Assembly: GCA_013151635.1 (NCBI GenBank)
Contig: JAADHV010000011.1
Location: 1-49,312 of the forward strand
DNA length: 49,312 nucleotides
Reading direction: 5' to 3'
Origin: Deltaproteobacteria bacterium
Lineage (GTDB): Bacteria > Desulfobacterota > Desulfobacteria > Desulfobacterales > Desulfobacteraceae
Below, one piece after another: positions 18,033-39,155 of the stretch. Each line of letters begins with the position of its first letter. Within the stretch, counting starts at the first letter, position 1. The notes under the pieces were generated by a model, which was given only the letters and a program-made list of their open reading frames with translations, ran no database searches and was not told the DNA's origin. The position numbers and the translations under genes are program-made.

Positions 18033-18122
18033 TCATGTTTAATGCCTGCAGGATGCTAAAAATGTAATATGAGTTTTTAACTGATTGCCTATGAAGAGTA
18101 ATTATGATAAGAATTTTTGATT

Positions 18123-18881: not shown

Positions 18882-19741
18882 CAAAAAAAAAAAATACTGG
18901 TCTGGGCCGGGGAATTTCAGCACTGATCCCGGATTTTGAAACCCCTGAGAACAATCCTGATTTTTTCATGTGTCCTGTAGGGGATATCTCGCCTAACAGG
19001 TATCAGCCAAGAACGGTATTCAGCGGAGAAGAGCTGGATCGCCTCAAGGATTCCATTGCCCAACAGGGCGTTTTGCAACCTTTACTGGTAAGATGCCTTG
19101 ATGATTCCTATGAATTGATAGCGGGCGAGAGAAGGCTTCGTGCCGCAAAGGAAGCCAACCTGACCCATGTGCCGGTATTTGTGAAAAACCTGACTGATGA
19201 ACAGGTTTTGGAAGTTTCAATTATTGAGAATATTCAAAGGGAAAATTTAAATATCCTTGAAGAGGCAGCTGCCTACCACAGGTTGATCAGGGAATTTAAA
19301 TATACCCAGGAAAAAGTTGCAGAAAAAATAGGGAAAAACCGTTCTACCATTGCAAATCTTCTGCGTCTTTTGAGCCTTCCCCAGGTGATAAAAGACAGCC
19401 TTATTGCAAAAAAAATATCCATGGGGCACGCAAGGGCTCTTTTGGGGGCAGGTTCAGAGGAAAACCAGATTTATCTTTTCAAAATTGTCCTTGAAAAAGG
19501 GTTATCTGTAAGACAGACGGAAAAGCTTGTAAACAAGGTCAAAAAAGAGCCTAAAAAATTACAGCAAAAATTATCTGCTGCTGAAAAACAATTCCTTGAT
19601 GAAACATGCTCGATCCTTTCAAGCCGGATCAAGTCCAGGGTCAGGATTCAAAAGAACGGTGACAAGGGCAAAATAGAAATTAAATTTAAATCAAAAACAG
19701 AATTCCAGCGGCTGGTTGATCTTTTAAGTCATCTTTCATGA
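18878..19741 (+). CDS. parB: Chromosome-partitioning protein ParB (Spo0J)
   Basis: 287 residues. The N-terminal ParA-contact peptide (LGRGISALI) is followed by the ParB/CTPase region with GERRLRAA and IIENIQRENLN, a helix-turn-helix that binds parS (EKIGKNRSTIANLLRLL) and a basic C-terminal dimerisation end. Family members load onto parS and spread as CTP clamps. The start overlaps parA (ATGA) and the stop overlaps the following ispH fusion (ATGA), so three genes are translationally coupled. Confidence 0.93.
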   Translation: MTKKKNTGLGRGISALIPDFETPENNPDFFMCPVGDISPNRYQPRTVFSGEELDRLKDSIAQQGVLQPLLVRCLDDSYELIAGERRLRAAKEANLTHVPVFVKNLTDEQVLEVSIIENIQRENLNILEEAAAYHRLIREFKYTQEKVAEKIGKNRSTIANLLRLLSLPQVIKDSLIAKKISMGHARALLGAGSEENQIYLFKIVLEKGLSVRQTEKLVNKVKKEPKKLQQKLSAAEKQFLDETCSILSSRIKSRVRIQKNGDKGKIEIKFKSKTEFQRLVDLLSHLS

Positions 19742-23691: not shown

Positions 23692-24594
23692 TTATTTATT
23701 TTGTCTGCCGGTTTTAAGCAGCTTGATTTTTTCATCTTTTTTTTGCCATAAATTGTTCAGCCAGCAAAAAAAATAGTTTTTATACTCTGGATCATTAAAA
23801 TAATCGCCGGTGATGGAATCGGTCAGGGCAATAACTTCAAAGTCCATCACGATCTTATTGACCCTTCCTGAAACATATTCCCAGAATGTTGGGATTTTAT
23901 CAGGATAGACAATGGTGACATCAATGATTTTATGAAGATATTCCCCCATGGAGCCTAAGACAAAAGCAACGCCTCCTGCTTTCGGGGTAAGAAGATGTGT
24001 GAATTGATTGTTCTTGGAATTTTTTTTATGCGGGGAAAACCTTGTTCCTTCTACAAAATTTATAATGGAAACCGGTGTGTGTTTGAATTTTTCACATGCT
24101 TTTTTTGTACTTTCAAGGTCTTTGCCCCTTAGATGGGGGTTTTCTTTTATTTTCTTTTTTGAATACCTCTTCATAAAAGGAAAATCCAAAGCCCACCAGG
24201 CAAGTCCTAAAAAGGGAATCCAGATCAGTTCTTTTTTTAAAAAAAATTTCAGCATGGGGATTTTTTTGTTCAAGGTGGTTTGCAAGGCTAAAATATCCAC
24301 CCAGGACTGGTGGTTTGAAATAACCAGGTACCATTCTTTTTTTTCAAGCTTTTCAAGGCCCCTTATATCCCAGTCTATTTTGCAAAAAAGTTTTGAGTTG
24401 AGTGAATTGATCCATATCCAGAGTGTGGCAATGGATATAAGTATCCTGTCAAGAACCACAACAAAGGAATGGACAGGGATGATAAACTTGAAAAAAGAGG
24501 CTAAAATCAAAGGGATGGTAAGAAAGATGGTGTTTAACGTATACAGCAGCAGGGATAAAATACCTGTGAGTGGATGGGGTAAAAAATTAAGCAT
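23692..24594 (-). CDS. 1-acylglycerol-3-phosphate O-acyltransferase-like (PlsC family)
   Basis: 300 residues. One or two N-terminal membrane segments (about 10-65) precede the acyltransferase core: NHQSWVD (motif I, HX4D), an FPFMKR region and FVEGTR (motif III). Layout and length resemble YihG/PlsC-like enzymes that acylate lysophosphatidic acid at the inner membrane. It lies four bases after the sigma-54 regulator and is probably co-transcribed with it. Together with the divergent lipid megasynthase this suggests it could install the unusual acyl chain into lipid, which is an inference from position. Confidence 0.85.
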   Translation of the reverse strand: MLNFLPHPLTGILSLLLYTLNTIFLTIPLILASFFKFIIPVHSFVVVLDRILISIATLWIWINSLNSKLFCKIDWDIRGLEKLEKKEWYLVISNHQSWVDILALQTTLNKKIPMLKFFLKKELIWIPFLGLAWWALDFPFMKRYSKKKIKENPHLRGKDLESTKKACEKFKHTPVSIINFVEGTRFSPHKKNSKNNQFTHLLTPKAGGVAFVLGSMGEYLHKIIDVTIVYPDKIPTFWEYVSGRVNKIVMDFEVIALTDSITGDYFNDPEYKNYFFCWLNNLWQKKDEKIKLLKTGRQNK

Positions 24595-24598
24595 GGAT

Positions 24599-26086
24599 TT
24601 ATTTTTCTTTTTTAAAATTTATAATATGTTTTTTAATTGTTCTTCTGTCCAGCCCTGTCAATTTCGCAACCTTTTCATAGGTGCCGGCATTATCGTACAA
24701 AAGTCTGCAATATCCTGATACCAGGGACGATACCAAAATATTTTGATCGATAATGCCCTGTATGAGTTCCTGGGCCAGGGACAGGTTCTTTGTCCTGTCT
24801 TTTTGTTTTCCGTTATAATCCCGCCGCAACAGGACACTTCTTACGCATTGCTCAAGCTCTCTTACGTTTCCCGGCCATTGATAATCTTTCCCAAGCCGGC
24901 GGTCAATAATTCTTTTGACTTTTAAAATTAATTTTTCAGAATGGGTTCCGGTCATTTTTTGGATGGTAAAATCAAGGAGATCGTCCAGTTCAGACGGTTT
25001 TTCCATTATCCTGGTGCGAAGAGGCGGAACTTCAATGATATCGGAACAAAGCCTGTAATAAAAATCGTCCCTGAATACCTTTCCGTCTATAATATCATTT
25101 TTGGGCCGGTTTGTTGCTGCTATTACCCTTCCGTTGAATCTTGATGTCTCATGGGTTCCTACAGGGGAAAAGCTTCTTTCCTGGAGAACTCTTAAAAGTT
25201 TGATCTGTACATGGTTGGGGATCTCGCCGATTTCATCCAGAAGGATGGAACCATGGGGGCTGCAACGGTCAAACACCCCCTGGTAATCATCCACAGCGCC
25301 TGTAAAAGCTCCTTTTGTGTGGCCGAATAATTCAGACTCGAGCAGGCTTTCAGGATACTGGGAAAGATTAAGAGAAGAAAAAGCCCGGGTAAAGCTCTGG
25401 GTAAAGCATTGTTTTTTTTCATCAAAGGGTATATATCCGCTTCTCCCGACGGCCTTGGCGGCCGTGCCTTTTCCCGTACCGGTTTCACCTAAAAGCAGGG
25501 TGGAAAAATCTTCCATTTTGTTCCATAAAAATTGATTGTAATGATCAATATTATAGGTAAAAACATTGTACCATAAATGCTTTTTTAAAGTTTTCATACA
25601 TGGGCTGCTTCCTACAAGGGAGCTGGAAATAAAGTAAAAGGCACGTCTTAGCTGATAGGAAAGGGCAAAATAATGGAGGATGCTTTTATCTTCAAACCCC
25701 TTTGCATGGAGCATCTGCATGGCTTTTTGTGCAAAAGGAACCCTGATGGATGTATCCTGGGCCTTAATTTGATTTTTTATTAAAAGGTCAAAACTATCCC
25801 GGAATTTATGAAAGATATCAAATAAAAATACAATTGTGATGATTTTCCTGTCCTCATCGTGAAAGGCATTTATATCGGCCCGGCCCTGCCTTTCAAGGTC
25901 TTTTATCCGGCGATCCACTTCTTTTATGCAAAGATCTTTACTTTTTCTCCTTGATACGGAAGGAAAAAGGCCTGCAATTTTTATATCCAGTTTTTCCCTT
26001 AAATCACTGAATGGGTTTGCAAAAGCAGCATTATAGACTGTCCTGAAAAAGTGGCGTTCTTCAAAAGTGAGTATGGCTTTTTTCAA
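24599..26086 (-). CDS. Sigma-54-dependent activator without receiver domain
   Basis: 495 residues from a TTG at 26086 (GGAG seven bases upstream). The N-terminal 180 residues are helical with no recognised sensory family. The AAA+ domain has Walker A GETGTGKG, an intact GAFTGA loop in LFGHTKGAFTGA, and LLDEIGE. A C-terminal helix-turn-helix (KVAKLTGLDRRTIKKHI) binds DNA. It is transcribed away from the megasynthase gene, whose upstream region contains a -24/-12 promoter and palindromes. It is the obvious activator of that gene and acts without a phosphorelay, through its unknown N-terminal domain. Confidence 0.9.
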   Translation of the reverse strand: MKKAILTFEERHFFRTVYNAAFANPFSDLREKLDIKIAGLFPSVSRRKSKDLCIKEVDRRIKDLERQGRADINAFHDEDRKIITIVFLFDIFHKFRDSFDLLIKNQIKAQDTSIRVPFAQKAMQMLHAKGFEDKSILHYFALSYQLRRAFYFISSSLVGSSPCMKTLKKHLWYNVFTYNIDHYNQFLWNKMEDFSTLLLGETGTGKGTAAKAVGRSGYIPFDEKKQCFTQSFTRAFSSLNLSQYPESLLESELFGHTKGAFTGAVDDYQGVFDRCSPHGSILLDEIGEIPNHVQIKLLRVLQERSFSPVGTHETSRFNGRVIAATNRPKNDIIDGKVFRDDFYYRLCSDIIEVPPLRTRIMEKPSELDDLLDFTIQKMTGTHSEKLILKVKRIIDRRLGKDYQWPGNVRELEQCVRSVLLRRDYNGKQKDRTKNLSLAQELIQGIIDQNILVSSLVSGYCRLLYDNAGTYEKVAKLTGLDRRTIKKHIINFKKEK

Positions 26087-26240: not shown

Positions 26241-26255
26241 TGGCACAATATTTGA
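26241..26255 (+). promoter_or_regulatory. Sigma-54 (-24/-12) promoter of the megasynthase
   Basis: TGGCAC-AATAT-TTGA has the required spacing (GG to TTG) of TGGCACG-N4-TTGC, differing at the last C. It lies 82 bp before the megasynthase ATG at 26337, leaving a leader of about 70 bases. A divergent sigma-54 activator gene begins 155 bp upstream. Confidence 0.75.
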
Positions 26256-26336
26256 AACATAAAATGGCGCAATGTGAATTTTCATGGCAGTGCCGTGAAA
26301 ATTAAAAAAACAAAAACAAATTATGGAGAAATACTT

Positions 26337-29300
26337 ATGATTAGGAGAATACTGAATTCAAGACTGCCTTTAATGGTTTATAACCCGGTAAAGGTATTTG
26401 ATATAAAGTATTTTAACAAGATTTTCAATGCCGGGGCTCTTCCTGTATTTGATACGGAATTTTTGACCCATGACGAAATACTCCGGAACGCTTCGCAGCT
26501 TTCCAAAGAGAAATTGAGTTTTGGTATCAGGCTTTGGGCTCATGACGCAGAGCTTATCGGGAAAATCAAACAACAGCGGATGGCTAATCTTGATCTTTTA
26601 ATTTTCCCTTTTTCAAAAGCCGGTACACCGGCGGATCTCAATAATTTCGGTGATACAAAAATTGTTCTTGAAATCAAAGATATTAATATAAATGAAAAAA
26701 TCAAAGAGGTCTCACCCCATGCCCTTATCCTGAAAGGGAATGAGGCCGGGGGAAAGGTTTCAAAATATTCGTCTTTTATCCTGATGCAATGGTATTTGAA
26801 AAATAATGAATTGCCTTTGTTCATCCATGGCGGCGTTGGAAAATACACTGCCGCCGGCATGTTTGCAGCAGGTGTCTCAGGCCTTGTCATGGACAGCCAG
26901 TTTCTCATGACGGATGAAGCCCCTGTATCTGGTAGTTTTAAAAAACTTTTAGGCATGGTTGATGAAAGTGATTCAACCGAAATTACATATGATGGCAGTG
27001 ATATTTACCGTGTGTTTGCAAAACTTGGCACTAAAATTGTCAAGGACCTGAAGCAAAAGGCAATTGAATTTAGTGGCGCCCCCGGGGGAAAAGGCAAGGT
27101 CTATCAATCTATTTGTAATAATATAACCGCCCTTGATAAAGAAGACGGCAATTTTATCCAGTCTCTTTTCTACCTTGGCCAGGATGGGGTCTTTGCAAAG
27201 GATTTTATAAAAGGTTCAACCTGTCTTCGTGACATCATATCCGGTTTTTTCAAGACCATTGGTGAGAATTTGAATTTTATTGATGAATTCGACCCTGTGA
27301 AACCAGGCTCTGAATTTGCCATTGACCAGGGAACAAAATTTCCATTGATCCAGGGGCCCATGGCCAATATTTCCGACAACTCTGATTTTGCAAATAAAGT
27401 TCTTGAACATGGGGCGTTGCCGTTTTTCGCCGTGGGAAGCCTTCCCGAGCAGCTTGCAGACGACATGCTGAAGGATGGCAGCCGGAAAGTGGATGTCTTT
27501 GGTGCAGGCCTTGTGGGGATTGAAGCCTTTAACCCCATGGTAAAAAAACACCTTGACATGGTTAAAAAGTACAAGGTTCCCTATGCGCTTTTTGCAGGCG
27601 GGGTTCCTTCCCAGGTGGCAGAGCTTGAAAAAGCAGGAACCAAAACTTATCTTCACACCCCGTCGTTATCCATGATGGAAAATGCTCTGAAAAGCGGGTG
27701 CAAGAGGTTCATCTTTGAAGGCGGGGAAGCAGGAGGCCATGTGGGAACCCTTTCTTCAATGGTGCTGTGGGAGGATGCCATTTCCACCTTGATTAATCAA
27801 AATTATGATCTTTCTGATTTATACCTGGTATTTGCAGGTGGCATTTCCACCTGTTTTGCATCTTTTTTTATTTCAGGGCTTGCATCCTTTCTTGCTGCCA
27901 AAGGGGCGAAAATCGGAATCCAGGTTGGGACAGCCTATCTTTTTGCCGATGAAATCGTGGCAACCAAGTGTATTAAATCCCAGTACCGGGATATCATTAT
28001 CAAGGAAAACGAAACCATGGTCATCGGCAAAAGCCTGGGGTTGTGGTCAAGAACGGCGCCCACAAAGTTTGCAAGGATGATGATAGAAAATGAAGCTGAA
28101 ATGATCAAAAACAAAGAAAGCCTTGAAAATAGAAAACGTGCTTTTGAAAAAAGAAATATAGGTTCTTTGCTCATAGGCGCAAAAGGCTTTTTGCCGGATT
28201 TTAAAAAACCGGGGCCTGAGAATTATACGTGGTTTGAAGATGAGGAACACAAGGAAAAGGGCAATTTTCTTGTGGGGGACAGCCTTGCCTTTTTTGAGGG
28301 TGCGGTCACTATAAAAAAGATCCATGATAAATATTTCAAAGCCAAATCAGCACTTTATAAAAATATTAATTCTCTTGAGATATTTTCAAGCTCAAAAAAT
28401 AAAATCAATGATGAGATAGCCGTAGTGGGCATTGGTTGCACATTGCCGGATGCTGGTGATCCTGACAGTTTGTGGAAAAATATTTTAAACAAAAAATATT
28501 CCATAAGCCGGATGCCGGAATCAAGATTCGACCATGATCTTTATTACGATCCCGACAAAAGTGCGGAAGATAAAACATACACCACGCTTGCAGGGCATGT
28601 GGACAATTTTAAATTTGACCTGGAACGGTTCGGGTATACCGAAGAAAAAGCAAAAAGGCTTTCCCGCAGCCAGAAAATGGTGCTGCAGACCGCATACAAA
28701 GCCGTTGAAAATGCAGGGCTCCTGAACGAAGATGACCGTCTTGCCTGTGATGACCCTTCCAGGACAGCCGTTATTATAGCCACCTGTCTTTCCAACGAGC
28801 TTGGCAATGACCTTCAGCTTAAATACTGGTATCCCCAGATAGTTTCCATGATGGAGGACACAGAAGAGTACCAGGCTTTAAGCAATGAAGAAAAAGACAA
28901 AGTCAATAAAGCTTTAATGGAAGGCATGGAAGGGGAAAACACCGGATACGATCCTGTCCACGGCATTCTTTTGAATATTGAAGCTTCAAGGATTGCCCGT
29001 CATTTAGGGATCAGGGGTGCAAATTATATTGTCGATGCTGCCTGTGCATCCTCGATGACTGCAATTGACGCTGCAAAAAGTGAGCTTTTATCAGGCGATC
29101 ATGACCAGGTTATTGTGGGCGGGGTCAATACCCACCTGGCCCCGGAATCTTTTATCGGGTTCGCAAAAATGGGAACCTTGTCCAAAGTCGGGTCCTACCC
29201 CTTTGACAAAAGGGCTGACGGGTTTATCTTGGGTGAAGGGTCTGTTATTTTCGTGTTAAAAAGAATGAAAGATGCCATAAGGGACAAGAACCGTATTTTC

Positions 29301-32300
29301 GGCGTCATAAATTCCATAGGTGCAAGTTCCGACGGTAAGGGAAAAGCCATTGCAGCACCGAATCCAAAAGGACAGGCATTAAGTTTGCAAAGGTGTTTTG
29401 AAAATCTTCGCCCCGGGATACGGCCCGAAGATATCGGTTTTATCGAAGCCCATGGTACATCCACTGTCATCGGTGATAAGGCAGAGCTTGAGACCTTAAA
29501 TTCCATCTACAAAAATTCTGGTGCAGGTGTAAGTTCCATAAAATCCCAGATCGGGCATCTTTTGGGGTGTGCAGGGTCAGCAGGGCTTTTAAAGGCGTTG
29601 CTGACAGTTAACAATGGCATTTTGCCGCCCAATGGAAATTTTGAAACCCTTTCTGAAAACCATGATTTAAGGGATTCTTCCCTGTTTATTTTAAAAGACG
29701 CAAAAGAATGGAAACTTAAAGATAATCTTTCAAGGAAAGCTGCGGTTTCTTCATACGGTTTTGGCGGTATTAATTACCATATGGTTGTAGAGCAGATGAC
29801 AAGGAACTATCAACCTGTCCCACGGGATATTTTCATTGACCCTGACTATGATTTTAATGATGACAGGATTGTTGTTGCAGGCCTTGGGGTTTTTCTCCCC
29901 GGTGCGAAAAATACAGAGGAATTCTGGGAAAAACTTCAATCAGGGGAAAAGCAATTGTCAAGGATCCCTGCCGAACATTTTAATAATGATGCCTATTCGC
30001 GTCTTGATAAAAATTCTTCTTACAGGCTCCCTGAGGTAAAGGCAGGTATTGTTAAAGAATATAAGTTCAACAACCTGAAATACAGGATGCCGCCCATGAT
30101 GGTTAAATCCATCGAGAGAGGGCAGATTTTCGGGCTTGAAGCCGCCAGCGAGGCATTAGAAAGTTCAGGTCTTCTTGACCGCTTAAGTGCTGCCAACAAG
30201 GTGGGCGTGATTCTCGGTACTATTGCAGGAGAAAGGCAGAGTAAAAATATTGTCAGGGTCAGAAAACAATTTATCGGCAATATCATTAAAAATTGTCCAG
30301 GGATTGAGCCTGATAAACGCAGCATGCTTTCAGATAAGCTTGTGGAATCGATCCGGACCACTATTCCGGAGAATAATGAAGATACAACGCCAGGGCTTTT
30401 GTCCAATATCATTTCCGGCAGGATTGCCAATTATTTCGGCTTGAACGGTGCCAATTATGTTATTGACGCATCCTGTGCCTCTTCCTTTATAGCCATGAGA
30501 AATGCGGCCAGGAACTTAAAACACAAAGATCTTGATTTTGTCCTTGCAGGAGGGGTTGACTGTAATATTTACCCGGCAGTTCTGATGGCCTTTAAACGCC
30601 TTGGCCTGTTATCAGAAGGGGAGTGTAACTTTTTCGATTCAAGGGCTGACGGGTATGTAATGGGAGAGGGTGCGGCAATTCATATGATGACCACCTATAA
30701 GAAGGCTCGTGAATATGATATGCAGATTCTAGGTGAAATCAATGAATGCGCTGTCCGCTCAAGTGTTCCAGACCATCTTCTTGCCCCTTCGGAACATACT
30801 TTTGTGTCCACCATAAACGAAACATATAATAAATCCGGTATCAGGAAAAAGGATGTCAATCATCTGGATCTTTTTGCATTTTCCAATATTTTCGGTGATA
30901 TCGTCGAAAAGCAGGTAATTGAACAATGCTTTGACCATGAAATGCATTGCGGGAATATCAAATCCCAGTTCGGGTATTTTAAAGCGGCAAACCCTGCAGT
31001 TGCCATGGCAAAGCTGATGCTCATGAACCGCAATGGAAAAATTCTGCCGGATTTTAATTATGATCCTGAGCATTCTGTCTTAAATGGCAGTAAAATTTTA
31101 AAGCCGGCCCGTAATATGGTTGTAAAATCAAAAGGGCAGCCTTTCAGGTTCGCGGCCAACGTCAATGGTATCGGCGGCAATCACTGCCATATGATCATGA
31201 GCTCATTGCCGGCAGTGTTAGAAAAAGAAGAGCCCGTGGTTGAAGCCCAATTCAAGGAAGAAGCCGGGGATGATATCGTACTGATCGACCATGCTTATTC
31301 TGCTGATAACAAAGGTAAAAAATTGAGAATGGTTGCTCTTCTTTCCGGCCAGGGTGCCCAGAGAAGCCACATGATGAAGGATCTTTTTGAAAGGGATGCC
31401 CATATAAGAAAGATAATGGAAAAAGGCGAAAAAGTCTTTGTTGAGCAAAGAGGATATTCCCTTTTGGACATGATGTTCGGTACGGATGATGCCATTAACT
31501 CGACACAGAATACCCAGCCTGCGGTTTTTCTTTCTTCTGCTGCCATTTACAGCAGGCTTTCCAGGGAAGGGTTTGCCCCTGATTATTTTATCGGCCACAG
31601 TGTCGGAGAATACACGGCACTTTTCTGCAGCGGCATGCTGTCCTTTAATGATGCCATGCGTCTTATCATGAAACGTTCTGACCTCATGCATGAAGCCACC
31701 TTAAAAGTCCCGGGCAAAATCATGGTGGTATTTAAAAATGAAAAAGAAACAGAGCATATGATAAGGAAATCATTTGTTTCAAATATTTATATTACCAATA
31801 AAAACAGTGAAAAACAGACTGCTGTCTCGGGCCGGGCCGAGGATATAGAAAAATTCTGTGTATTTTTAACCCAGCAGGATGTTTTCTACCAAAAGCTGAA
31901 TCTTACCGGGGCTTTTCATACGCCCCTCTTAAAAGAAGCTTCAAAAGAGTTAAGAGATTACCTTGATACCATAAATTTTAATGACACAAGGTTTGGCCGG
32001 ATAATTTCCAACACCCTTGCAAGACCGTACCCTGAAAGCCATGAAGACGTCAAGGACCTGTTGGCAAAACAGATTATTTCACCTGTTGAATTTATTAAAT
32101 CCATAGAGAATGTATATGTATCAGGCAGGAGTCATTTCATAGAGATCGGGCCTTCAAGGCTGCTTGTTAATCTTTTGAAAAATATTAATATAGGAGAGTA
32201 TGGCACGGCTGTATCCGTGGATGCAAAAACAGGGGAGATAAAATCCTTTGAAGCGTGCAGGAAATATCTTCGGGGCTGCAACAGCATTTTTGAGGCCAAG

Positions 32301-35300
32301 CCCATGCCGGTAACCGGCCCGGATATTGTTCCCCCAATTAAAGAGGAGTTGCCAAAAACAGACATGTCTCAAGATTTTGAATCCTTTAAACAAAATAACA
32401 GGAAACTGGTTGATCAGATCCTTTACAGGGAATATCAGCGCCAGAAACGTGAAAGTGCCATTGATGCCATTGAAAGATATAATTTTAATACCGGTAAAAT
32501 ATTGATATCAGGCGTTTCCGTGGGCCTGCCGGGAAAAGCAAGGCGCGTGTTTGCAAGGGATAATTTCGATGCTATTTTAAATGGCGAAAATTTTATCGAC
32601 CCCCTGACAATTGAAGCCCAGGAAAAATTTACAGATAAGAATATCACCAAGCTCTATAAACAGCCTGACGGCAATGCAAGGTTTGTACAGATTACCAAGA
32701 CCGAAGATGTCATACATCTTGCAGGACAATTGGGGTATTTTGACCTTACGGATGAATACGGCATCAAAGAACAATATGATATAAGCATGGCAATCGGCAT
32801 TGCCGCCGGGATTGAAGCCTTAAAAGATGCCAATATCCCCCTTGTCATGCAGTATAAAAAGGTGAAGGGCGGAAGGAGCATGCTTCCCGACGGGTTTGCC
32901 CTGCCAAAAGAAATGCAGGAAGAAACAGGGGTTATTATTACCTCGCTCTGGCCCAGCGGTGAAACCATGATTTCAGAGCTTGAAAAATATTTTTATGAGA
33001 AAATGTTTCTCAAACCCTACGAAGAGTTTGAAAATATTTACTATTTTCTCATGGAGAAAATAAAAGACCTGGGTATTAAAGAAGAATTGACTGAATGGTT
33101 TTTCAAAGCAAAATCAAGAAAGAGACCGGATTTTCAAACTTATAAGTTTGACAGGGATTTTTTGTCCAATGCCTGTCCCTTAGGCTCAGCCCATTTTGCC
33201 CGGATTATCAAGGCAAAAGGCCCTAATACCCTTGTAAGTTCCGCATGTGCATCAACAACGCTTGCAATTGGTATTGCCGAAGACTGGATCAGGGTCGGCC
33301 GGTGCAAAAGGGTTCTTGTTGTCGGCGGTGAAAATGCAACATCTTCTATCCAGAACCAGTGGGTTGGATCAGGCTTTCTGGCACTTGGTGCAGCTACCAT
33401 TAAAAAAAGAGTGTCCGAGGCTGCCAAACCCTTTGATGAAGACCGTAACGGAACCATCCTCGGCTCAGGTGCCGTGGGCCTTGTCATTGAAAGCCAAAGC
33501 TGCGCAGAGAAAAGAGGCATGACCGGCCAGTGCGAGATCCTTGGCACTCATATCGCCAATTCTGCATACCACACTTATAATATTGATGTGCCCCATATGT
33601 CCCGAGAGATGAAAAAATTCATCGAAAAAGTGGAAAAACAAAATGATATTAAAAAAGAAGATTATGCTGACAAGCTCCTTTTCATGTCCCATGAAACTTA
33701 TACTCCGGCAAGGGGAGGCAGTGCCGACGCTGAAGTAACTGCCTTGGAAACAGCATTTGCCGACCATTTGAACGGCATTTGCATATCCAATACCAAGGGG
33801 TTTACCGGCCATACCCTGGGGGCTGCCATAGAAGACGTCGTGCTGGTCAAAGCCCTTCAGAAAAGAAAAGCCCCTCCCATTGCCAATTTGAAAAAAATAC
33901 CAGACCATTTCAGGAAGCTTAACTTTTCAGGCCAGGAGGAAATTAATTGTGAATATGGCCTCCACCTGGCTGCCGGGTTTGGTTCCCATTTTGCTTTCAT
34001 GTTTGTTAAAAGGGTAGAGGAAACAAAGGTTGAAGGCAATACAAGGTATCAGAACTGGCTAAAGCAAATCACCGGGAGTGAAGATCCTGAGCTTAAAATT
34101 ATTGACAACACTCTTTGCGCCGTGGCAAGAGGAGAAGCTTTGCCGCAAACAGACAGGAAAGTTGAGATGCCTGCGGCACCAGCTATCCCTGCCATGCCTG
34201 CAGAGCCTGTGCCTGTTGCGGTGGCAAAAGAAAAACCTGCTGACCTTGAAACAAAAATGGTTGAAGAACCGGTCCCGGAGTCTTCCGGTGCCATGGTTCT
34301 TGAAACTATTAAAAATATTATTGCCGTGCAGACAGGTTATACGGCAGACATGCTGGAACATGACCTGGATCTTGAAGCCGATCTTGGAATAGATACGGTC
34401 AAGCAGGTTGAGATTTTTGGAAATATTGCCTCTCATTTCAGCTTTTCCGTACCGGACGACTTAAAGCTTCGTGATCTTAACACCATTGAAAAGCTTGGCG
34501 GGTATGTTGTGACAAAGCTTGATTTAAAAGACACCAGAGATGTGGCGCCATCTGCTGTGCAACCGGCTGCACCAAAGGTCCCCTCCAATGCCGTTGCCAT
34601 GGTAAAAGAAGTGATTGCCGAGCAGACAGGTTACACAGCGGACATGCTGGAGGAGGATCTTGATCTTGAAGCAGACCTTGGGATAGATACGGTAAAACAG
34701 GTTGAAATTTTTGGGAAAATTGCTTCCACATTCGGTTTTTCCGTGCCGGACGACTTGAAACTAAGAGATTTAAACACTATTGCAAGGCTTGGGGATTATA
34801 TCCATACAAGGCTTGGAACAGGTGATGAAGAACCCGAACTGCCGCAAGCCCGGCCAACTGCTGTTGAAGATCCCTTAAATGCCGTTGCCAAGGTTAAAGA
34901 AGTTATTGCGGTCCAGACAGGATATACGATAGACATGCTGGAGGAGGACCTTGACCTTGAAGCAGACCTTGGGATAGATACGGTAAAGCAGGTTGAAATT
35001 TTTGCCAAAATCGCATCCCATTTCGGTTTTTCCGTGCCGGATGACCTTAAGCTGCGAGACCTTAATACAATTGCAAAATTGTCCGACTATATCAAAACAA
35101 GGGCAGGTGCGGGCCAGGCACCAGGGACAGGACCTGTAACCCGGGTTAAAACCCTGGAACCTGTCAAGGCAGAGAAAGTCAATGTCCCTTTAAATGAGGA
35201 CGATGAATTCCCCGATCCTGCTTCCCCTATTAAACGTCTGCTTGTCAGGGCTGTTGAAGCTCCTGTGCCTGAACTTTCCAAAAAGGATTTTAAAGGCAAA

Positions 35301-37742
35301 AAGATCATTGTTTCACTTGACAGCCACGGGTTTGCAACAAAGGTTGCACAAGAGATAATACAGAAAAAGGGAGAAGTCATCACCATTGGCGGCAAGGGTG
35401 CTGATTTTAAGTTTGACCTTGCCGATGTAAAAGCCACGGAAAAAAGGGTGGAAGAGTTTAAAAAAGCCTATCCCGGGATAAACGGGTTTATTCATCTTGC
35501 ACCCCTTGACGCTTATTTTGACCGGAATAATAAGAACGGAGATTCAGATGAGTCCCTTAATACAACCGTTAAATCTTTTTTTGTCATAATTAAGAGCCTT
35601 TTTGAAAATCTTGACCGGGAAGACAATGTCATTGGAACCATCACCTTTGACTCGGTTGTATTTCCCTACATGGAAGGCTGTGGCGATATTCACCCCATGT
35701 TTGCAGGGCTTGCAGGTCTTATGAAGACGGCAAACAAGGAACTGCCCGGCACCATGGTAAAGGTTGTGGATTTTTCCTTTAAACATCCCAGGAAGAGTGC
35801 GGCAAAGATTGCTGGTACTTTCATAAACGAGTTGCTTTGTGATGATACAAGATGTGAGGTGGGATACAGGAATAAAAAACGCTATGTCATTTCCATGAAG
35901 CCTTCCATTGCGGAAAAAAATCATCCCGTCATATCTGAGAACGATACCATGCTTGTTACAGGGGGAGCCGGCGGCATTACTTATGAAATTATTAAAAAGG
36001 TGGTTGAAAAATATAAAGTCAACCTGATCATCCTGGATATCAACGACATATACAGCACTGATCAAAAATACCTGGACAAGACTTCCACCCAGGCACAGCT
36101 TATGGGCATGCTCAAAAATGACATGCCCGGTGTTAAACCAGTTGAAATAAAACGTGCTCTTGACCGTCTGATGCGGGTCCGGCTGTCTATTGACAATATT
36201 GAGCATCTTAAGTCCCTGGGTGTAAGTGTTGAATATAATTGCGTGGATGTAACCAATGCAGATGCTGTCAAAGCGGCCGTGGATAAATATGACAGGATTG
36301 ATGGAGTTTTTCATGCAGCAGGCATGGAAATGAGCCAGTTCATTCCCAAAAAGGAACTCTGGTCTTTTGAACTTGTGGTGGATGTTAAAGTCAAAGGCAT
36401 GAGAAATCTTTTGCAGGCTTTTGATGAGAGAGGGTATAAATACTTTTTTACATTCTCTTCTGTTACTGCCCGTTTTGGAAATGAAGGACAGGTGGATTAT
36501 ACAGCAGCCAATGATTTTCTTGGAAAAACGCTTTTCAGGCAGAAACAGCTTCATCCTGAAAGAACCTACAAGGTCTATGCATGGACGGCCTGGGACGGCG
36601 TTGGCATGGCAACCAACCCCACAGTAAAGATGGTTCTGGAGCAAAGAGGTATTAAGTTCCTTCCAATGGAACAGGGGGTCAGGTTTTTCATGGCAGATCT
36701 TTTGGACAAGACAGAGTCTGAAATGGTATTTTCCGGCCTTGATTATTCATTTGACAAGGACGGCCTGTTAGGAGACCCGGAAAACAAAGAGTTCCCGTTT
36801 TTAGACACCCCGGTGGAGAAAACAACCGGCAGTATGACGTATTCAAGAGTGCTGGATATTGAAAGGGATATCTTCCTTCATGATCATACAATGGAAGATG
36901 TACCGCTTTTCCTTGGGTCCACGGGAATTGAAACCATGGCCGAGGTTGCAGGCTCCATGGCTGACGGGAAAGCTGATTTTGTTGAACTTACAGATTTTCA
37001 TATCCCCTACGGGATCAAACTTTTAAAGGGACGTCCAAAAGAGCTTTTGATTTCAGCAAATAAGGATGGCAAAGGCCTTTATGACTGTAGTATTACCTCT
37101 GTTTTCAAGAACCCCAAGGGTGTTGTCATGGGTGAACCCAAACTCCATTATCAAGGTAAATACAGGTTTGCCAAAAAACCTTTAAAGGCAAAAAAGATAA
37201 ACCTGCCTGAATTTAACAGGGTAACCTTTGATGGTGATTTTGAAGCCCTGGCATATAACCCTAAAAGGCTTTTCATGTTCGGGCTTTTTGGCACTATCAC
37301 GGATATTAATTCCTTTGACGGAAAAACATTGGTTACAACAGTGGAGGACAAGAGCAATAAAGAGTTTTTCAAAGGGGTGAAAGATCCTGAGTTTGTGGCA
37401 GCGCCCATCCTGGTGGATGCAATGTTCCAGACCGGTGGCCTTTTCGAGTTTTTCACGACTTCAAGAACAGTTCTGCCCTATAAAATCAAATCATTGAAAT
37501 TTTACCGTGATGTGGAAAAGAATAAAAAATATTATTGCATTACAGGCAAGATGGCATCCGGCGATGAGACAAACACCTATGACCTTATGCTTACAGATAA
37601 AAAAGGAAATGTTTTTATTGAGGTGAAAAGCTTTGAAATGGTGAAACTCAACCGCCTTGATCCTGAAGACAGGATAACTGACCGGATCAATTTCCGTGTT
37701 GCTGAGGAAGCTAAGGAAAAGGACCGTTCAGAGGTCATCTGA
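26337..37742 (+). CDS. PUFA-synthase-like lipid/polyketide megasynthase, single chain
   Basis: 3801 residues from the ATG at 26337 (GGAG eight bases upstream; a GTG at 26274 lacks one). Domains in order: two nitronate-monooxygenase-like (PfaD/enoyl-reductase) barrels, the second with EGGEAGGHVG and His468, the first with Lys140 at that place (1-690). KS1 has Cys903, His1039 and His1074 (693-1152). KS2 has Cys1380, but Phe1515 and Tyr1547 replace the His residues (1175-1630). The acyltransferase has Ser1755 in GHSVGE (1660-1955). A divergent KS3 has Cys2304, His2452 and His2492 (2055-2565). An Ala/Pro linker leads to three ACPs (2650-2960) with Thr2687, Thr2785 and Thr2882 where the phosphopantetheine Ser is expected. 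A KR-type region and Rossmann domain follow (2980-3455), then a double-hotdog dehydratase (3500-3780). It resembles Pfa-type secondary lipid synthases with PfaA, C and D functions merged. The product is unknown. No phosphopantetheinyl transferase is nearby. Confidence 0.92.
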   Translation: MIRRILNSRLPLMVYNPVKVFDIKYFNKIFNAGALPVFDTEFLTHDEILRNASQLSKEKLSFGIRLWAHDAELIGKIKQQRMANLDLLIFPFSKAGTPADLNNFGDTKIVLEIKDININEKIKEVSPHALILKGNEAGGKVSKYSSFILMQWYLKNNELPLFIHGGVGKYTAAGMFAAGVSGLVMDSQFLMTDEAPVSGSFKKLLGMVDESDSTEITYDGSDIYRVFAKLGTKIVKDLKQKAIEFSGAPGGKGKVYQSICNNITALDKEDGNFIQSLFYLGQDGVFAKDFIKGSTCLRDIISGFFKTIGENLNFIDEFDPVKPGSEFAIDQGTKFPLIQGPMANISDNSDFANKVLEHGALPFFAVGSLPEQLADDMLKDGSRKVDVFGAGLVGIEAFNPMVKKHLDMVKKYKVPYALFAGGVPSQVAELEKAGTKTYLHTPSLSMMENALKSGCKRFIFEGGEAGGHVGTLSSMVLWEDAISTLINQNYDLSDLYLVFAGGISTCFASFFISGLASFLAAKGAKIGIQVGTAYLFADEIVATKCIKSQYRDIIIKENETMVIGKSLGLWSRTAPTKFARMMIENEAEMIKNKESLENRKRAFEKRNIGSLLIGAKGFLPDFKKPGPENYTWFEDEEHKEKGNFLVGDSLAFFEGAVTIKKIHDKYFKAKSALYKNINSLEIFSSSKNKINDEIAVVGIGCTLPDAGDPDSLWKNILNKKYSISRMPESRFDHDLYYDPDKSAEDKTYTTLAGHVDNFKFDLERFGYTEEKAKRLSRSQKMVLQTAYKAVENAGLLNEDDRLACDDPSRTAVIIATCLSNELGNDLQLKYWYPQIVSMMEDTEEYQALSNEEKDKVNKALMEGMEGENTGYDPVHGILLNIEASRIARHLGIRGANYIVDAACASSMTAIDAAKSELLSGDHDQVIVGGVNTHLAPESFIGFAKMGTLSKVGSYPFDKRADGFILGEGSVIFVLKRMKDAIRDKNRIFGVINSIGASSDGKGKAIAAPNPKGQALSLQRCFENLRPGIRPEDIGFIEAHGTSTVIGDKAELETLNSIYKNSGAGVSSIKSQIGHLLGCAGSAGLLKALLTVNNGILPPNGNFETLSENHDLRDSSLFILKDAKEWKLKDNLSRKAAVSSYGFGGINYHMVVEQMTRNYQPVPRDIFIDPDYDFNDDRIVVAGLGVFLPGAKNTEEFWEKLQSGEKQLSRIPAEHFNNDAYSRLDKNSSYRLPEVKAGIVKEYKFNNLKYRMPPMMVKSIERGQIFGLEAASEALESSGLLDRLSAANKVGVILGTIAGERQSKNIVRVRKQFIGNIIKNCPGIEPDKRSMLSDKLVESIRTTIPENNEDTTPGLLSNIISGRIANYFGLNGANYVIDASCASSFIAMRNAARNLKHKDLDFVLAGGVDCNIYPAVLMAFKRLGLLSEGECNFFDSRADGYVMGEGAAIHMMTTYKKAREYDMQILGEINECAVRSSVPDHLLAPSEHTFVSTINETYNKSGIRKKDVNHLDLFAFSNIFGDIVEKQVIEQCFDHEMHCGNIKSQFGYFKAANPAVAMAKLMLMNRNGKILPDFNYDPEHSVLNGSKILKPARNMVVKSKGQPFRFAANVNGIGGNHCHMIMSSLPAVLEKEEPVVEAQFKEEAGDDIVLIDHAYSADNKGKKLRMVALLSGQGAQRSHMMKDLFERDAHIRKIMEKGEKVFVEQRGYSLLDMMFGTDDAINSTQNTQPAVFLSSAAIYSRLSREGFAPDYFIGHSVGEYTALFCSGMLSFNDAMRLIMKRSDLMHEATLKVPGKIMVVFKNEKETEHMIRKSFVSNIYITNKNSEKQTAVSGRAEDIEKFCVFLTQQDVFYQKLNLTGAFHTPLLKEASKELRDYLDTINFNDTRFGRIISNTLARPYPESHEDVKDLLAKQIISPVEFIKSIENVYVSGRSHFIEIGPSRLLVNLLKNINIGEYGTAVSVDAKTGEIKSFEACRKYLRGCNSIFEAKPMPVTGPDIVPPIKEELPKTDMSQDFESFKQNNRKLVDQILYREYQRQKRESAIDAIERYNFNTGKILISGVSVGLPGKARRVFARDNFDAILNGENFIDPLTIEAQEKFTDKNITKLYKQPDGNARFVQITKTEDVIHLAGQLGYFDLTDEYGIKEQYDISMAIGIAAGIEALKDANIPLVMQYKKVKGGRSMLPDGFALPKEMQEETGVIITSLWPSGETMISELEKYFYEKMFLKPYEEFENIYYFLMEKIKDLGIKEELTEWFFKAKSRKRPDFQTYKFDRDFLSNACPLGSAHFARIIKAKGPNTLVSSACASTTLAIGIAEDWIRVGRCKRVLVVGGENATSSIQNQWVGSGFLALGAATIKKRVSEAAKPFDEDRNGTILGSGAVGLVIESQSCAEKRGMTGQCEILGTHIANSAYHTYNIDVPHMSREMKKFIEKVEKQNDIKKEDYADKLLFMSHETYTPARGGSADAEVTALETAFADHLNGICISNTKGFTGHTLGAAIEDVVLVKALQKRKAPPIANLKKIPDHFRKLNFSGQEEINCEYGLHLAAGFGSHFAFMFVKRVEETKVEGNTRYQNWLKQITGSEDPELKIIDNTLCAVARGEALPQTDRKVEMPAAPAIPAMPAEPVPVAVAKEKPADLETKMVEEPVPESSGAMVLETIKNIIAVQTGYTADMLEHDLDLEADLGIDTVKQVEIFGNIASHFSFSVPDDLKLRDLNTIEKLGGYVVTKLDLKDTRDVAPSAVQPAAPKVPSNAVAMVKEVIAEQTGYTADMLEEDLDLEADLGIDTVKQVEIFGKIASTFGFSVPDDLKLRDLNTIARLGDYIHTRLGTGDEEPELPQARPTAVEDPLNAVAKVKEVIAVQTGYTIDMLEEDLDLEADLGIDTVKQVEIFAKIASHFGFSVPDDLKLRDLNTIAKLSDYIKTRAGAGQAPGTGPVTRVKTLEPVKAEKVNVPLNEDDEFPDPASPIKRLLVRAVEAPVPELSKKDFKGKKIIVSLDSHGFATKVAQEIIQKKGEVITIGGKGADFKFDLADVKATEKRVEEFKKAYPGINGFIHLAPLDAYFDRNNKNGDSDESLNTTVKSFFVIIKSLFENLDREDNVIGTITFDSVVFPYMEGCGDIHPMFAGLAGLMKTANKELPGTMVKVVDFSFKHPRKSAAKIAGTFINELLCDDTRCEVGYRNKKRYVISMKPSIAEKNHPVISENDTMLVTGGAGGITYEIIKKVVEKYKVNLIILDINDIYSTDQKYLDKTSTQAQLMGMLKNDMPGVKPVEIKRALDRLMRVRLSIDNIEHLKSLGVSVEYNCVDVTNADAVKAAVDKYDRIDGVFHAAGMEMSQFIPKKELWSFELVVDVKVKGMRNLLQAFDERGYKYFFTFSSVTARFGNEGQVDYTAANDFLGKTLFRQKQLHPERTYKVYAWTAWDGVGMATNPTVKMVLEQRGIKFLPMEQGVRFFMADLLDKTESEMVFSGLDYSFDKDGLLGDPENKEFPFLDTPVEKTTGSMTYSRVLDIERDIFLHDHTMEDVPLFLGSTGIETMAEVAGSMADGKADFVELTDFHIPYGIKLLKGRPKELLISANKDGKGLYDCSITSVFKNPKGVVMGEPKLHYQGKYRFAKKPLKAKKINLPEFNRVTFDGDFEALAYNPKRLFMFGLFGTITDINSFDGKTLVTTVEDKSNKEFFKGVKDPEFVAAPILVDAMFQTGGLFEFFTTSRTVLPYKIKSLKFYRDVEKNKKYYCITGKMASGDETNTYDLMLTDKKGNVFIEVKSFEMVKLNRLDPEDRITDRINFRVAEEAKEKDRSEVI

Positions 37743-37745
37743 ACC

Positions 37746-37788
37746 ATATTGCCCCTGCCTTTTAACCTTTTTTTGGCAGGGGCAATAT
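37746..37788. terminator. Strong bidirectional terminator
   Basis: ATATTGCCCCTGCC pairs perfectly with GGCAGGGGCAATAT (14 bp) around a 15-base T-rich loop. It lies three bases after the megasynthase stop and ends 29 bp before the stop of the convergent biotin carboxylase, so it can serve both transcripts. Confidence 0.85.
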
Positions 37789-37817: not shown

Positions 37818-39155
37818 TCAGATATGTTCTATAAAATGAGTATCAATGTCACCCTTTATAAAGGCTTTGTTTTCAAATACTTTCCGGAAAAAGGGTATGG
37901 TTGTCTGAATCCCTTTGATCTGGAATTCATCCAATGCTTTTTTCATACGTTTGATGGCTGACGGTCGATCCTGAGCCCAGACAATGAGTTTGCCGATAAG
38001 AGAATCATAAAAAGGGCCAACCATGTATTTATCATGGATATGAGTGTCGATCCGGATGCCTGGACCGCCCGGAAAGAGAATAGATTCGATTTCACCCGGA
38101 GACGGCATAAAATTGTCTTCTGGGTCTGAAGCATTGATCCTGCATTCCATTGACCAGCCATTGGGGATAATTTCATCCTGCCTGATTTCAAGCTTTTGAC
38201 CTGCTGCAATCAAAATCTGCTGTTGAACAATATCAATCCCCGTAATCAGTTCTGTTACAGGATGCTCTACCTGAATCCTGGCATTGACTTCCATAAAATA
38301 AAAATTTTTGTCTTTATCCACTAAAAACTCCATGGTGCCTGCATTGAAATATTCCATGGATCTGGCAATTTTTATGGCTGTTTCCCCGAGGGTGGCCCGG
38401 AATTCATCATCCACAAAAGATGAAGGGGCTTCTTCAATGAGTTTTTGATATCTCATCTGGATACTGCATTCCCGTTCTGCCAGATGAATATAATTGCCAT
38501 GCATATCACCCAGGATCTGGATTTCTATATGTCGTGGTTTATCAATATATTTTTCAAGATAAATGTCAGGATTGCCAAAAGCCGCCTTTGCTTCTCCCGA
38601 TGCTATGGAAAAGGCTTCAATAAGTTCTTCTCTGGTGGCGGCAATCCTCATGCCCCGGCCGCCGCCGCCGCCGGACGCCTTTAAGATCACCGGAAATCCA
38701 ACCCTGTCCGCCACCTTGCAGGCCATATCGGAAGATAAAATTATATCATCACTTCCCGGGATCACAGGAATACCAAGTTCAATCAAGGCCTGCCTGGCCG
38801 ATGATTTATTGCCTGCTTTTTCAATGCTTTGGGCAGAAGGCCCGATGAAGGTCATGCCATTGTCCTGGCAAGCCTGTGCAAAGCTAGCATTCTCAGATAA
38901 AAATCCGTATCCGGGATGGATGGCAAAAGCTTTAGTCTTTTTTGCGGCCCCAACGATGTTATCAATATTTAAATAGCTCTTATAACTCAAGGCAGGGCCG
39001 ATATTTACGGCATCATCCGCATACCTGACATGGAGGCTGTCCTTGTCGGCATCGGAATAAACAGCAACAGTCCCAATTCCCATTTCTTTGCAGGCACGAA
39101 TGATCCTTACGGCGATTTCGCCCCTGTTTGCTATTAAGATGCGTTTAAATACCAT
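37818..39155 (-). CDS. accC: Biotin carboxylase
   Basis: 445 residues, the usual AccC length. It carries the N-terminal pre-ATP-grasp domain (ILIANRGEIAVRIIRACKEMG), the glycine-rich ATP loop KASGGGGGRGMRIA and the catalytic EVNARIQVEHPVTE motif. It carboxylates carrier-bound biotin with ATP and bicarbonate. It sits 30 bp downstream of a minimal biotin carrier gene and divergent from a TRAP transporter and pxpABC. No fatty-acid carboxyltransferase (accA or accD) is near, so a role with the PxpBC carboxyltransferase-like pair is more likely than housekeeping malonyl-CoA synthesis. Confidence 0.93.
   Translation of the reverse strand: MVFKRILIANRGEIAVRIIRACKEMGIGTVAVYSDADKDSLHVRYADDAVNIGPALSYKSYLNIDNIVGAAKKTKAFAIHPGYGFLSENASFAQACQDNGMTFIGPSAQSIEKAGNKSSARQALIELGIPVIPGSDDIILSSDMACKVADRVGFPVILKASGGGGGRGMRIAATREELIEAFSIASGEAKAAFGNPDIYLEKYIDKPRHIEIQILGDMHGNYIHLAERECSIQMRYQKLIEEAPSSFVDDEFRATLGETAIKIARSMEYFNAGTMEFLVDKDKNFYFMEVNARIQVEHPVTELITGIDIVQQQILIAAGQKLEIRQDEIIPNGWSMECRINASDPEDNFMPSPGEIESILFPGGPGIRIDTHIHDKYMVGPFYDSLIGKLIVWAQDRPSAIKRMKKALDEFQIKGIQTTIPFFRKVFENKAFIKGDIDTHFIEHI

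What the first reader, a model, noticed from the sequence alone, without database searches (positions are those of the whole stretch)
26337..37742. Single-chain 3801-residue PUFA-synthase-like enzyme with PfaD-type barrels at its N-terminus
Pfa systems normally split KS-AT-ACP-KR, KS-CLF-DH and enoyl reductase over several genes. Here two NMO-like barrels, three KS, AT, three ACP, KR and DH sit in one open frame, flanked by an acyltransferase, its own sigma-54 activator and a strong terminator. The product is probably an unusual lipid or polyketide.
Basis: partly seen in the sequence, partly recalled or inferred. Interest (0 to 1): 0.85.

Follow-up and report, generated by a model that had tools for sequence, protein, structure and literature searches.

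The report
One-gene fatty acid synthase, threonine carriers
A marine bacterium, probably a sulfate reducer, carries one giant gene for an apparently complete fatty-acid-making machine with an odd threonine where its carrier domains should have serine, and several ordinary separate fatty-acid genes were not found in its genome, so the giant enzyme may make its everyday membrane fats.

Summary
The 3801-residue frame and its domain order are real: two FabK/NMO-like barrels, KS, KS, AT, KS, three ACPs, KR, DH. It aligns at 46-84% identity with 23 other full-length copies from the same order. Corrections: the barrels are not PfaD-like (no TIGR02814 match, while this genome's own PfaD scores 622 bits) but resemble the N-terminus of the Type P (Ars) synthase; no FabA-type isomerase is present, so PUFA is not predicted. 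Barrel 1 and KS2 have lost catalytic histidines; the rest keeps residues for a full saturating cycle. All ACPs carry Thr where Ser normally takes phosphopantetheine; Thr-ACPs and an HETYT-type KS3 occurred together in 30 of 30 frames and in 0 of 13 Ser-ACP frames. No stand-alone FabD, FabF or FabZ was found in this genome; FabF and FabG are missing from its acpP operon; no stand-alone FabD was listed in any of 35 family genomes. Best reading: an iterative single-chain type I fatty acid synthase that helped replace FAS II. Product untested; a second Pfa-like synthase in the genome is a serious rival for that role.

The parts
26337..37742 (+). single-chain synthase, 3801 aa: ER0-ER-KS-KS0-AT-KS'-ACPx3-KR-DH
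26337..27266 (+). barrel 1 (ER0), aa 1-310; catalytic His site of EAGGH is Lys/Arg/Met/Asn/Leu in 24 of 24 copies
27309..28256 (+). barrel 2 (ER), aa 325-640; His of the EAGGH motif in 24 of 24
28410..29672 (+). KS1, aa 692-1112; Cys903, His1039, His1074 in 24 of 24
29862..31106 (+). KS2 (KS0 / CLF-like), aa 1176-1590; Cys1380 in 23 of 24, no His at either His site in 24 of 24
31335..32201 (+). malonyl/acyl transferase, aa 1667-1955, GHSVGEY
32754..34016 (+). KS3, aa 2140-2560; Cys and both His kept, HGTGT changed to HETYT; deep separate group
34284..35102 (+). three ACPs, aa 2650-2922, each DLGIDTVKQ: Thr2687, Thr2785, Thr2882 at the phosphopantetheine site
35946..36527 (+). ketoreductase core, aa 3204-3397; Ser3374, Tyr3388, Asn3392 in 24 of 24
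36744..37676 (+). PKS-type double-hotdog dehydratase, aa 3470-3780; His3517 and Asp3694 in 24 of 24
26241..26256 (+). sigma-54-like element TGGCAC-N5-TTGAA, 96 bases before the ATG
   Evidence: a site with GC at -12 was not found:
24599..26086 (-). divergent sigma-54 activator with GAFTGA motif; upstream of the synthase in 22 of 23 homologous loci
23692..24594 (-). PlsC-like acyltransferase (NHQSWVD, EGTR); near the synthase in 15 of 23 loci
37746..37788 (.). strong hairpin between the convergent synthase and accC genes

Best explanation
The gene encodes an iterative, fully reducing type I fatty acid synthase in one chain. Inferred cycle: the AT loads malonyl onto the ACPs; KS1 condenses, with KS2 as a non-condensing partner (a chain length factor or transacylase that kept its Cys but lost both His); KR reduces, the PKS-type DH dehydrates, and barrel 2 reduces the enoyl with FMN while barrel 1 is a catalytically dead partner; KS3 works specifically with the Thr-bearing ACPs. 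Without a FabA-type isomerase the expected product is a saturated acyl chain. No thioesterase is seen; the chain is probably passed from ACP to a lipid by the neighbouring PlsC-like acyltransferase, as the AGPAT domain is said to do in myxobacterial Pfa3. In this family the enzyme, together with a separate Pfa-like synthase with FabA domains elsewhere in the genome, has taken over from FAS II. Shown: domains, conserved residues, gene neighbourhood, and that FabD, FabF and FabZ were not found. Inferred: activity, product, phosphopantetheine on Thr, and which synthase does the bulk work.
For: Key catalytic residues of ER2, KS1, AT, KS3, KR and DH are the same in 24 of 24 copies. Own genome (95% complete): 2 of 2 FabD-type AT matches lie in this synthase and the C68 synthase; 6 of 11 KS matches lie in the C107, C68 and C70 chains, the other 5 cover only 39-51 residues of other frames; 4 of 4 FabA/Z-fold matches lie in the C68 and C70 chains. 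In its acpP operon rpiB follows acpP after 15 bp; FabF lies between them in 7 of 7 order relatives in which both were seen, and a FabG-like frame precedes acpP in 7 of 8, but not here. Stand-alone FabD among listed matches: 0 of 35 family genomes (24 of them at least 90% complete), 15 of 17 order members without this synthase, 3 of 6 order members with it. The single-contig genome G007 has two AT matches, both in megasynthases. Precedent: cloned Pfa synthases complement loss of fabD in E. [quoted passage not shown] the Type S synthase of Desulfobacterium autotrophicum was proposed as a core FAS (PMC3098273, section 9).
Against: The same genome has another complete-looking system on C68 (KS-AT-ACP2-KR-DH-FabA plus PfaD), which could be the main FAS. 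Order member G054 holds the synthase together with FabD, FabF and FabZ. Outside the family the FabD association is weak (3 of 6 against 15 of 17, Fisher p 0.09), and the family may count as one event. FabZ was also not listed in 5 of 17 order members without the synthase. Family member G008 has a stand-alone FabF-type frame (431 aa, 175.5 bits), though only 38% identical to an operon FabF and without rpiB or glyA beside it. A dedicated sigma-54 activator suggests conditional rather than constant expression. Thr ACPs might not be loaded at all. FabH, PlsX, enoyl reductases and FabG outside the operon were not searched; acpP operons of other family members were not looked at.
Confidence: 0.5

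Rival explanations
1. The C68 Pfa-like synthase with PfaD is the housekeeping FAS (its FabA domains would also give monounsaturated chains), and the window synthase is a sigma-54-controlled secondary-lipid synthase making a special long saturated or hydroxylated chain for an envelope lipid through the PlsC-like acyltransferase.
For: C68 system has KS, AT, Ser-ACPs, KR, DH, FabA and PfaD; divergent activator and sigma-54-like site by the window synthase; the nearest relative of known product, Type P, makes chains of a special lipid.
Against: Long AT-bearing frames (over 1100 aa) also occur in 13 of the 15 order members that lack the window synthase and keep FabD, so such a system alone does not go with loss of FabD; these frames were not checked to be C68 orthologues. 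The window synthase was found in 31 of 35 family genomes.
Confidence: 0.35
2. A true PUFA synthase.
For: TIGR02813 (PfaA) is the best NCBIfam hit, 850.7 bits.
Against: Below the curated cut-off 1010.1; no FabA-type DH/isomerase in the chain; barrels are not PfaD-like.
Confidence: 0.07
3. A polyketide synthase for a secreted metabolite.
For: PKS-type DH; KS3 of unusual type; a TRAP-type transporter (DctP, DctM) lies a few kilobases downstream behind accC and a GntR gene.
Against: No thioesterase, methyltransferase or tailoring enzyme among the ten neighbours scanned; presence in 31 of 35 family genomes is unlike a strain-specific cluster.
Confidence: 0.05

Closest known systems
Type R secondary lipid synthase (Shulse & Allen 2011, PMC3098273)
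   Same: Order KS-MAT-'CLF'-ACP(3-6)-KR in one chain; here too a KS sits between AT and ACPs. A Nonomuraea gerenzanensis frame with KS, AT, then KS3 motif and one Thr ACP looks like this core (L081; KR not tested).
   Different: N-terminal tandem ER module, an inserted KS2, a C-terminal DH; no PPTase gene next to it.
Type P (Ars) synthase of Azotobacter / Beijerinckia
   Same: N-terminal tandem NMO/FabK-like module fused to KS-AT-ACP-KR; 31% over 573 aa in the module. Known role: alkyl chains of phenolic lipids, e.g. C22 (PMC3098273).
   Different: Ser ACPs, one KS only, no DH call, and two genes downstream annotated as KS III C-terminal-domain proteins, which I read as the type III PKS partners.
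   Same: Tandem ER, KS1, AT, KS3 and Thr ACPs in one chain of 3538-3576 aa; full domain scan of L058 only.
   Different: 30-32% identity, no KS2, and a PPTase at the C-terminus (motif in 4 of 4). Their KS1 does not group with the window's KS1 in the tree.
Canonical Pfa synthase, Types A/B
   Same: KS-MAT-tandem ACP-KR core.
   Different: Split over pfaABCDE, PfaD-type ER, DH pair on PfaC; the window chain has neither PfaD nor FabA-type domains.
Type S synthase of Desulfobacterium autotrophicum HRM2
   Same: Sulfate reducer said to be of the same bacterial family (recalled); synthase proposed as core FAS because fabA and fabZ are missing.
   Different: Its domain order is only in a figure that is not held, so identity with the window gene could not be tested.

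Membership tests
Type R secondary lipid synthase | KS-MAT-CLF/KS-ACP(3-6)-KR in one chain | tested here: met
   with an extra KS2 between KS1 and AT; homologues have 2-4 ACPs
Type R secondary lipid synthase | PPTase gene downstream | tested here: not met
   downstream gene is accC; two PPTase-family matches elsewhere in the genome
Type R secondary lipid synthase | proximal KS clusters with named Type R KS | not testable with these tools
   no named Type R sequence was fetched; the Type-R-like Nonomuraea frame came after the tree and is not in it
Type P (Ars) synthase | N-terminal tandem ER module fused to KS | tested here: met
Type P (Ars) synthase | type III PKS partners in the cluster | tested here: not met
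   none among the ten neighbours scanned
Canonical Pfa (PUFA) synthase | FabA-type DH/isomerase domains | tested here: not met
   no PF07977 match in the chain
Canonical Pfa (PUFA) synthase | PfaD-type enoyl reductase | tested here: not met
   no TIGR02814 match to the module; own C68 PfaD 622.5 bits as positive control; BLASTP between the two E 0.013
Canonical Pfa (PUFA) synthase | score over TIGR02813 cut-off | tested here: not met
   850.7 against 1010.1 bits
Housekeeping type I FAS | all functions from malonyl loading to enoyl reduction in one chain | tested here: met
   (residues only; activity not tested)
Housekeeping type I FAS | FAS II absent or incomplete in the host | tested here: met
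   FabD, FabF, FabZ; FabH, PlsX and enoyl reductases not searched
Housekeeping type I FAS | makes the bulk membrane fatty acids | not testable with these tools
   needs mutants or labelling

The most novel reading that the evidence does not exclude
A bacterial family has discarded the condensing enzyme, malonyl transacylase and dehydratase of FAS II and makes its membrane fatty acids with a single-chain synthase of secondary-lipid ancestry whose carrier domains bear phosphopantetheine on threonine, read by a co-evolved HETYT-type ketosynthase. That the f84 relatives fuse a PPTase to such a synthase argues that the Thr is loaded.
Probability: 0.3. Interest if true: 0.85.

Novelty: new variant of a known kind. 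Interest (0 to 1): 0.62.

Why it matters
FAS II is usually taken as the general bacterial route (general knowledge, with Actinobacteria as the best-known exception). If the reading is right, a whole family of probably sulfate-reducing marine bacteria replaced its core by a megasynthase, which bears on lipid biomarkers and on inhibitors that aim at FAS II. Independently, a consistent Thr at the phosphopantetheine site, tied to one KS type, makes a basic rule of carrier proteins directly testable.

Tried and rejected
PfaD origin of the barrels: rejected. A plasmid-borne close relative: the 59 plasmid records that match the N-terminus do so below 60% identity and none over 80% of it. AccC next door as a dedicated malonyl-CoA supplier: no match in the fetched flanks of 23 of 23 homologous loci, nor in the other 13 loci of that call. 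A strict sigma-54 site (GG and GC): none in 28 of 28 loci; the looser match with TTGAA/TTGTA-like -12 scores 9 or more of 11 positions in 19 of 24 loci, each reached by at most 3% of 200 single-base shuffles; the other 5 score 6-8. Thr ACP as a sequencing error: rejected (pattern in 6 of 395 phylum genomes, 14 of 14 matches inside such synthases). Viral contigs: one match to the pattern (L080), a DFGIDTVKHY frame with none of the synthase motifs looked for, taken as chance. Structure prediction: ER module pLDDT 46.4, KS1-KS2 pLDDT 29.5, from alignments of 8 and 7 close sequences; too poor for a fold search, which was not run. The strand-helix pattern of the first (two runs of eight beta-alpha units by my reading) is only suggestive. 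G025 seemed to have a stand-alone FabF (443 aa, 161.6 bits); it is the C70-type chain cut at a contig end. Literature on Thr as phosphopantetheine site: nothing in the listings; on Desulfobacula or Desulfobacteraceae fatty acid synthases: nothing in the listings beyond PMC3098273.

Full report
OBSERVATION. The window is contig C107 of a 4.2 Mb, 136-contig genome. Seven named metagenome loci match the first 688 aa at 77-85%; four of the seven are titled Desulfobacula, from which I infer family Desulfobacteraceae and order Desulfobacterales for what the tools call f1 and 'same order'. The frame is 3801 aa from the ATG at 26337. Pfam order: NMO, NMO, KS, KS, AT, KS, three PP-binding, KR, DH. The two halves of the double-hotdog DH appear as a weak PKS_DH_N match (below cut-off) and a PS-DH match over cut-off.

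ANATOMY. I aligned the window protein with 28 other long frames, 23 from the same order (3698-4210 aa, 46-84% identity) and five more distant (28-32%). Over the 24 copies of the order: the His of the ER2 motif EAGGH, KS1 Cys-His-His, the AT Ser, KS3 Cys-His-His, KR Ser-Tyr-Asn and DH His and Asp are each invariant. ER1 has no His at the EAGGH site in 24 of 24. KS2 keeps Cys in 23 of 24 and has no His at either His site in 24 of 24. A conserved His of this reductase family is described as the proposed catalytic residue in PMC13311796 (abstract and section 2.5 read), where two ER domains of a thraustochytrid synthase form a heterodimer; a dead barrel paired with a live one would fit that picture (inference; in that enzyme both barrels keep the His). 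In a tree of 49 KS domains the eight KS1, eight KS2 and ten KS3 rows each form one supported group and KS3 is very deep; long branches limit the deeper order, and the KS1 of the f84 synthases stands apart from the window's KS1.

THREONINE CARRIERS. All three ACPs read DLGIDTVKQ. The corresponding DNA pattern was found in 6 of 395 genomes drawn from the phylum; 14 of 14 matches lie inside this kind of synthase, and the reversed control pattern gave none. Across the long frames at hand (at least 700 aa, with a readable ACP motif), 30 of 30 with Thr have the KS3 motif SHET[YF][ST]P and 0 of 13 with Ser do; the 13 count one gene twice (L055 and L070), so 12 distinct, and one Thr frame (L053) is incomplete. 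Loci without a readable motif (L071, L078) are not in the count. The own genome's C68 synthase has Ser. A Nonomuraea gerenzanensis frame of 2584 aa has KS, AT, KS3 and one Thr ACP by motif, in the Type R order. In four f84-family synthases a PPTase lies at the C-terminus (Pfam in L058, motif in 4 of 4), which argues that Thr ACPs are modified; a fifth frame (L062) with a Ser ACP also has the PPTase motif. That Ser is the normal site is general knowledge. The listings showed no paper on Thr in this role.

ORIGIN OF THE BARRELS. TIGR03151 (FabK) matches both barrels, far below its cut-off; the PfaD model TIGR02814 matches neither, while it gives the PfaD of this genome's C68 cluster 622.5 bits against a cut-off of 449.25. 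The solved relatives (11 distinct sequences) are FabK and nitronate-monooxygenase enzymes, all matched within 331-625. The module matches the N-terminus of the Beijerinckia indica Type P synthase over 573 aa, a 2674-aa chain NMOx2-KS-AT-ACP2-KR followed by two genes annotated as KS III C-terminal-domain proteins and a PPTase.

NEIGHBOURHOOD. The sigma-54 activator lies divergently upstream in 22 of 23 homologous loci (not L047), the acyltransferase in 15 of 23 (one of these only 39% covered; L040 ends at a contig edge), accC in 0 of 23 of the fetched flanks. The sigma-54-like site upstream is recurrent but lacks the usual GC at -12. A myxobacterial Pfa3 carries an AGPAT domain said to act in the chain-terminating step (PMC8436480, passages).

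FAS II IN THE OWN GENOME. No stand-alone FabD, FabF (five weak matches cover 39-51 residues of 408-428-aa frames, which I take for thiolases) or FabZ/FabA was found; one 77-aa ACP was. Its operon reads L32p, acpP, rpiB, glyA, deaminase, nrdR, ribD, with 15 bp between acpP and rpiB and gltX about 340 bp from acpP. Eight order relatives outside the family were chosen because one search gave a FabF position, so FabF presence there is by selection: FabF follows acpP in 8 of 8, with rpiB next in 7 of 8; in G044 rpiB was not seen in the fetched stretch. Five without the synthase (G035, G044, G046, G050, G057) have a 541-556-aa frame and a FabG-sized frame before acpP; the two large frames scanned are acyl-CoA dehydrogenases, and the three FabG-like frames scanned (L088, L089, L090) are SDR enzymes. 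Two with the synthase (G042, G043) keep FabG and FabF but not the large frame; one (G054) keeps FabF only; the window genome keeps none of the three. This looks like stepwise erosion, in a sample of three relatives and the own genome.

COUNTS OVER RELATIVES. Of 58 genomes searched (44 have some match at E 0.001) I carriers, with an N-terminal match at 44% identity or more: 31 of 35 in the window's family f1 and 6 of 23 outside. Not found in G003, G015, G021, G030; G003 has an AT piece of matching profile range on another contig. Stand-alone FabD (frames of 312-417 aa): 0 of 35 in f1 (smallest AT frame listed 572 aa), 3 of 6 carriers outside f1 (G048, G051, G054), 15 of 17 non-carriers (not listed for G040, G045). 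The lists are capped, so weak matches may be missing. Fisher over all 58: 3 of 37 against 15 of 21, p 1e-6; this ignores kinship. Outside f1 only: p 0.09. Stand-alone FabZ-like frames outside f1: 12 of 17 non-carriers, 4 of 6 carriers plus one in a 475-aa frame (G038); in f1 short frames in G002, G008, G012, G015, G023, G024, not resolved. FabF over 150 bits in a stand-alone frame, 20 chosen genomes: 5 of 5 non-carriers, 4 of 6 carriers outside f1 (G038, G042, G043, G054), and in f1 2 of 9 (G008, G025). The G025 frame is the C70-type chain cut at a contig end (85% over 435 aa, continued on C17); the G008 frame is 38% identical to the G035 FabF, against 50-75% among the operon FabFs, and no rpiB or glyA lies beside it. 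Weaker stand-alone KS frames (97-130 bits) exist in G007, G010, G027 and G048 and might still act as FabF. So of the six carriers outside f1, five lack FabD or a FabF over 150 bits (G051 also FabZ), and G054 has all three.

READING. The chain has the residues for every activity of a saturating cycle, and the enzymes that would otherwise do it were not found. Shulse and Allen raised the same thought for Type S of Desulfobacterium autotrophicum from missing fabA and fabZ, and Pfa synthases can stand in for FabD. The rival, that the C68 system is the everyday FAS and the window gene a regulated special-lipid synthase, cannot be excluded; long AT-bearing frames also occur in 13 of 15 non-carriers that keep FabD (orthology with C68 not checked), which makes it the weaker correlate. 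Product, loading of the Thr ACPs and the roles of KS2 and KS3 are inferred.

NOVELTY. Single-chain fusions, tandem ER modules and the Type R core are each known. The combination with KS2, the Thr-ACP/KS3 pairing and the association with loss of FAS II genes through a family did not turn up; those are ranked listings from an open-access library, so the claim is limited. Papers seen: PMC3098273 (section 5 part 1, sections 6-9, passages), PMC13291983 (outline and part of one section), PMC13311796, PMC8174602 and PMC8436480 as stated above, PMC6274091 (one passage on ArsA), others as listings.

Noticed in passing
G000:C68 (L070:1535-10669): A second Pfa-like system in the same genome: KS-AT-ACP2-KR-DH-FabA chain of 2480 aa with Ser ACPs and a PfaD gene (TIGR02814 622.5 bits), next to a phage integrase gene.
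   Followed up: partly
G000:C70 (L071:1665-10329): KS-CLF-FabA chain of 1424 aa beside a KSIII/thiolase-like, an alpha/beta-hydrolase and an AMP-binding gene, resembling the oleABC order of long-chain olefin synthesis (resemblance recalled).
   Followed up: no
L090:4209-5831, L092:3925-5580 and similar-sized frames in L086, L087, L091: An acyl-CoA-dehydrogenase-like gene (two of five frames scanned) sits between rpmF and fabG-acpP-fabF in order relatives without the synthase; possibly an enoyl-ACP reductase or an anaerobic route to unsaturation.
   Followed up: no
window 19738-21450: LytB (IspH) fused to a UbiA-type prenyltransferase in one 570-aa frame.
   Followed up: no
window 18117-19741: ParA and ParB genes about 6.6 kb upstream of the synthase, with the LytB-UbiA frame and FapA (21469-23634) in between.
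   Followed up: no
L056, L057, L063: Frames with a similar N-terminal module and Ser ACPs (2438, 1968 and 2788 aa) in other Desulfobacterota genomes, whose KS lie near the Beijerinckia Type P KS in the tree.
   Followed up: partly
window 37818-39155: A lone biotin carboxylase (AccC) gene convergent to the synthase, not found in the fetched flanks of any of the 23 homologues.
   Followed up: yes
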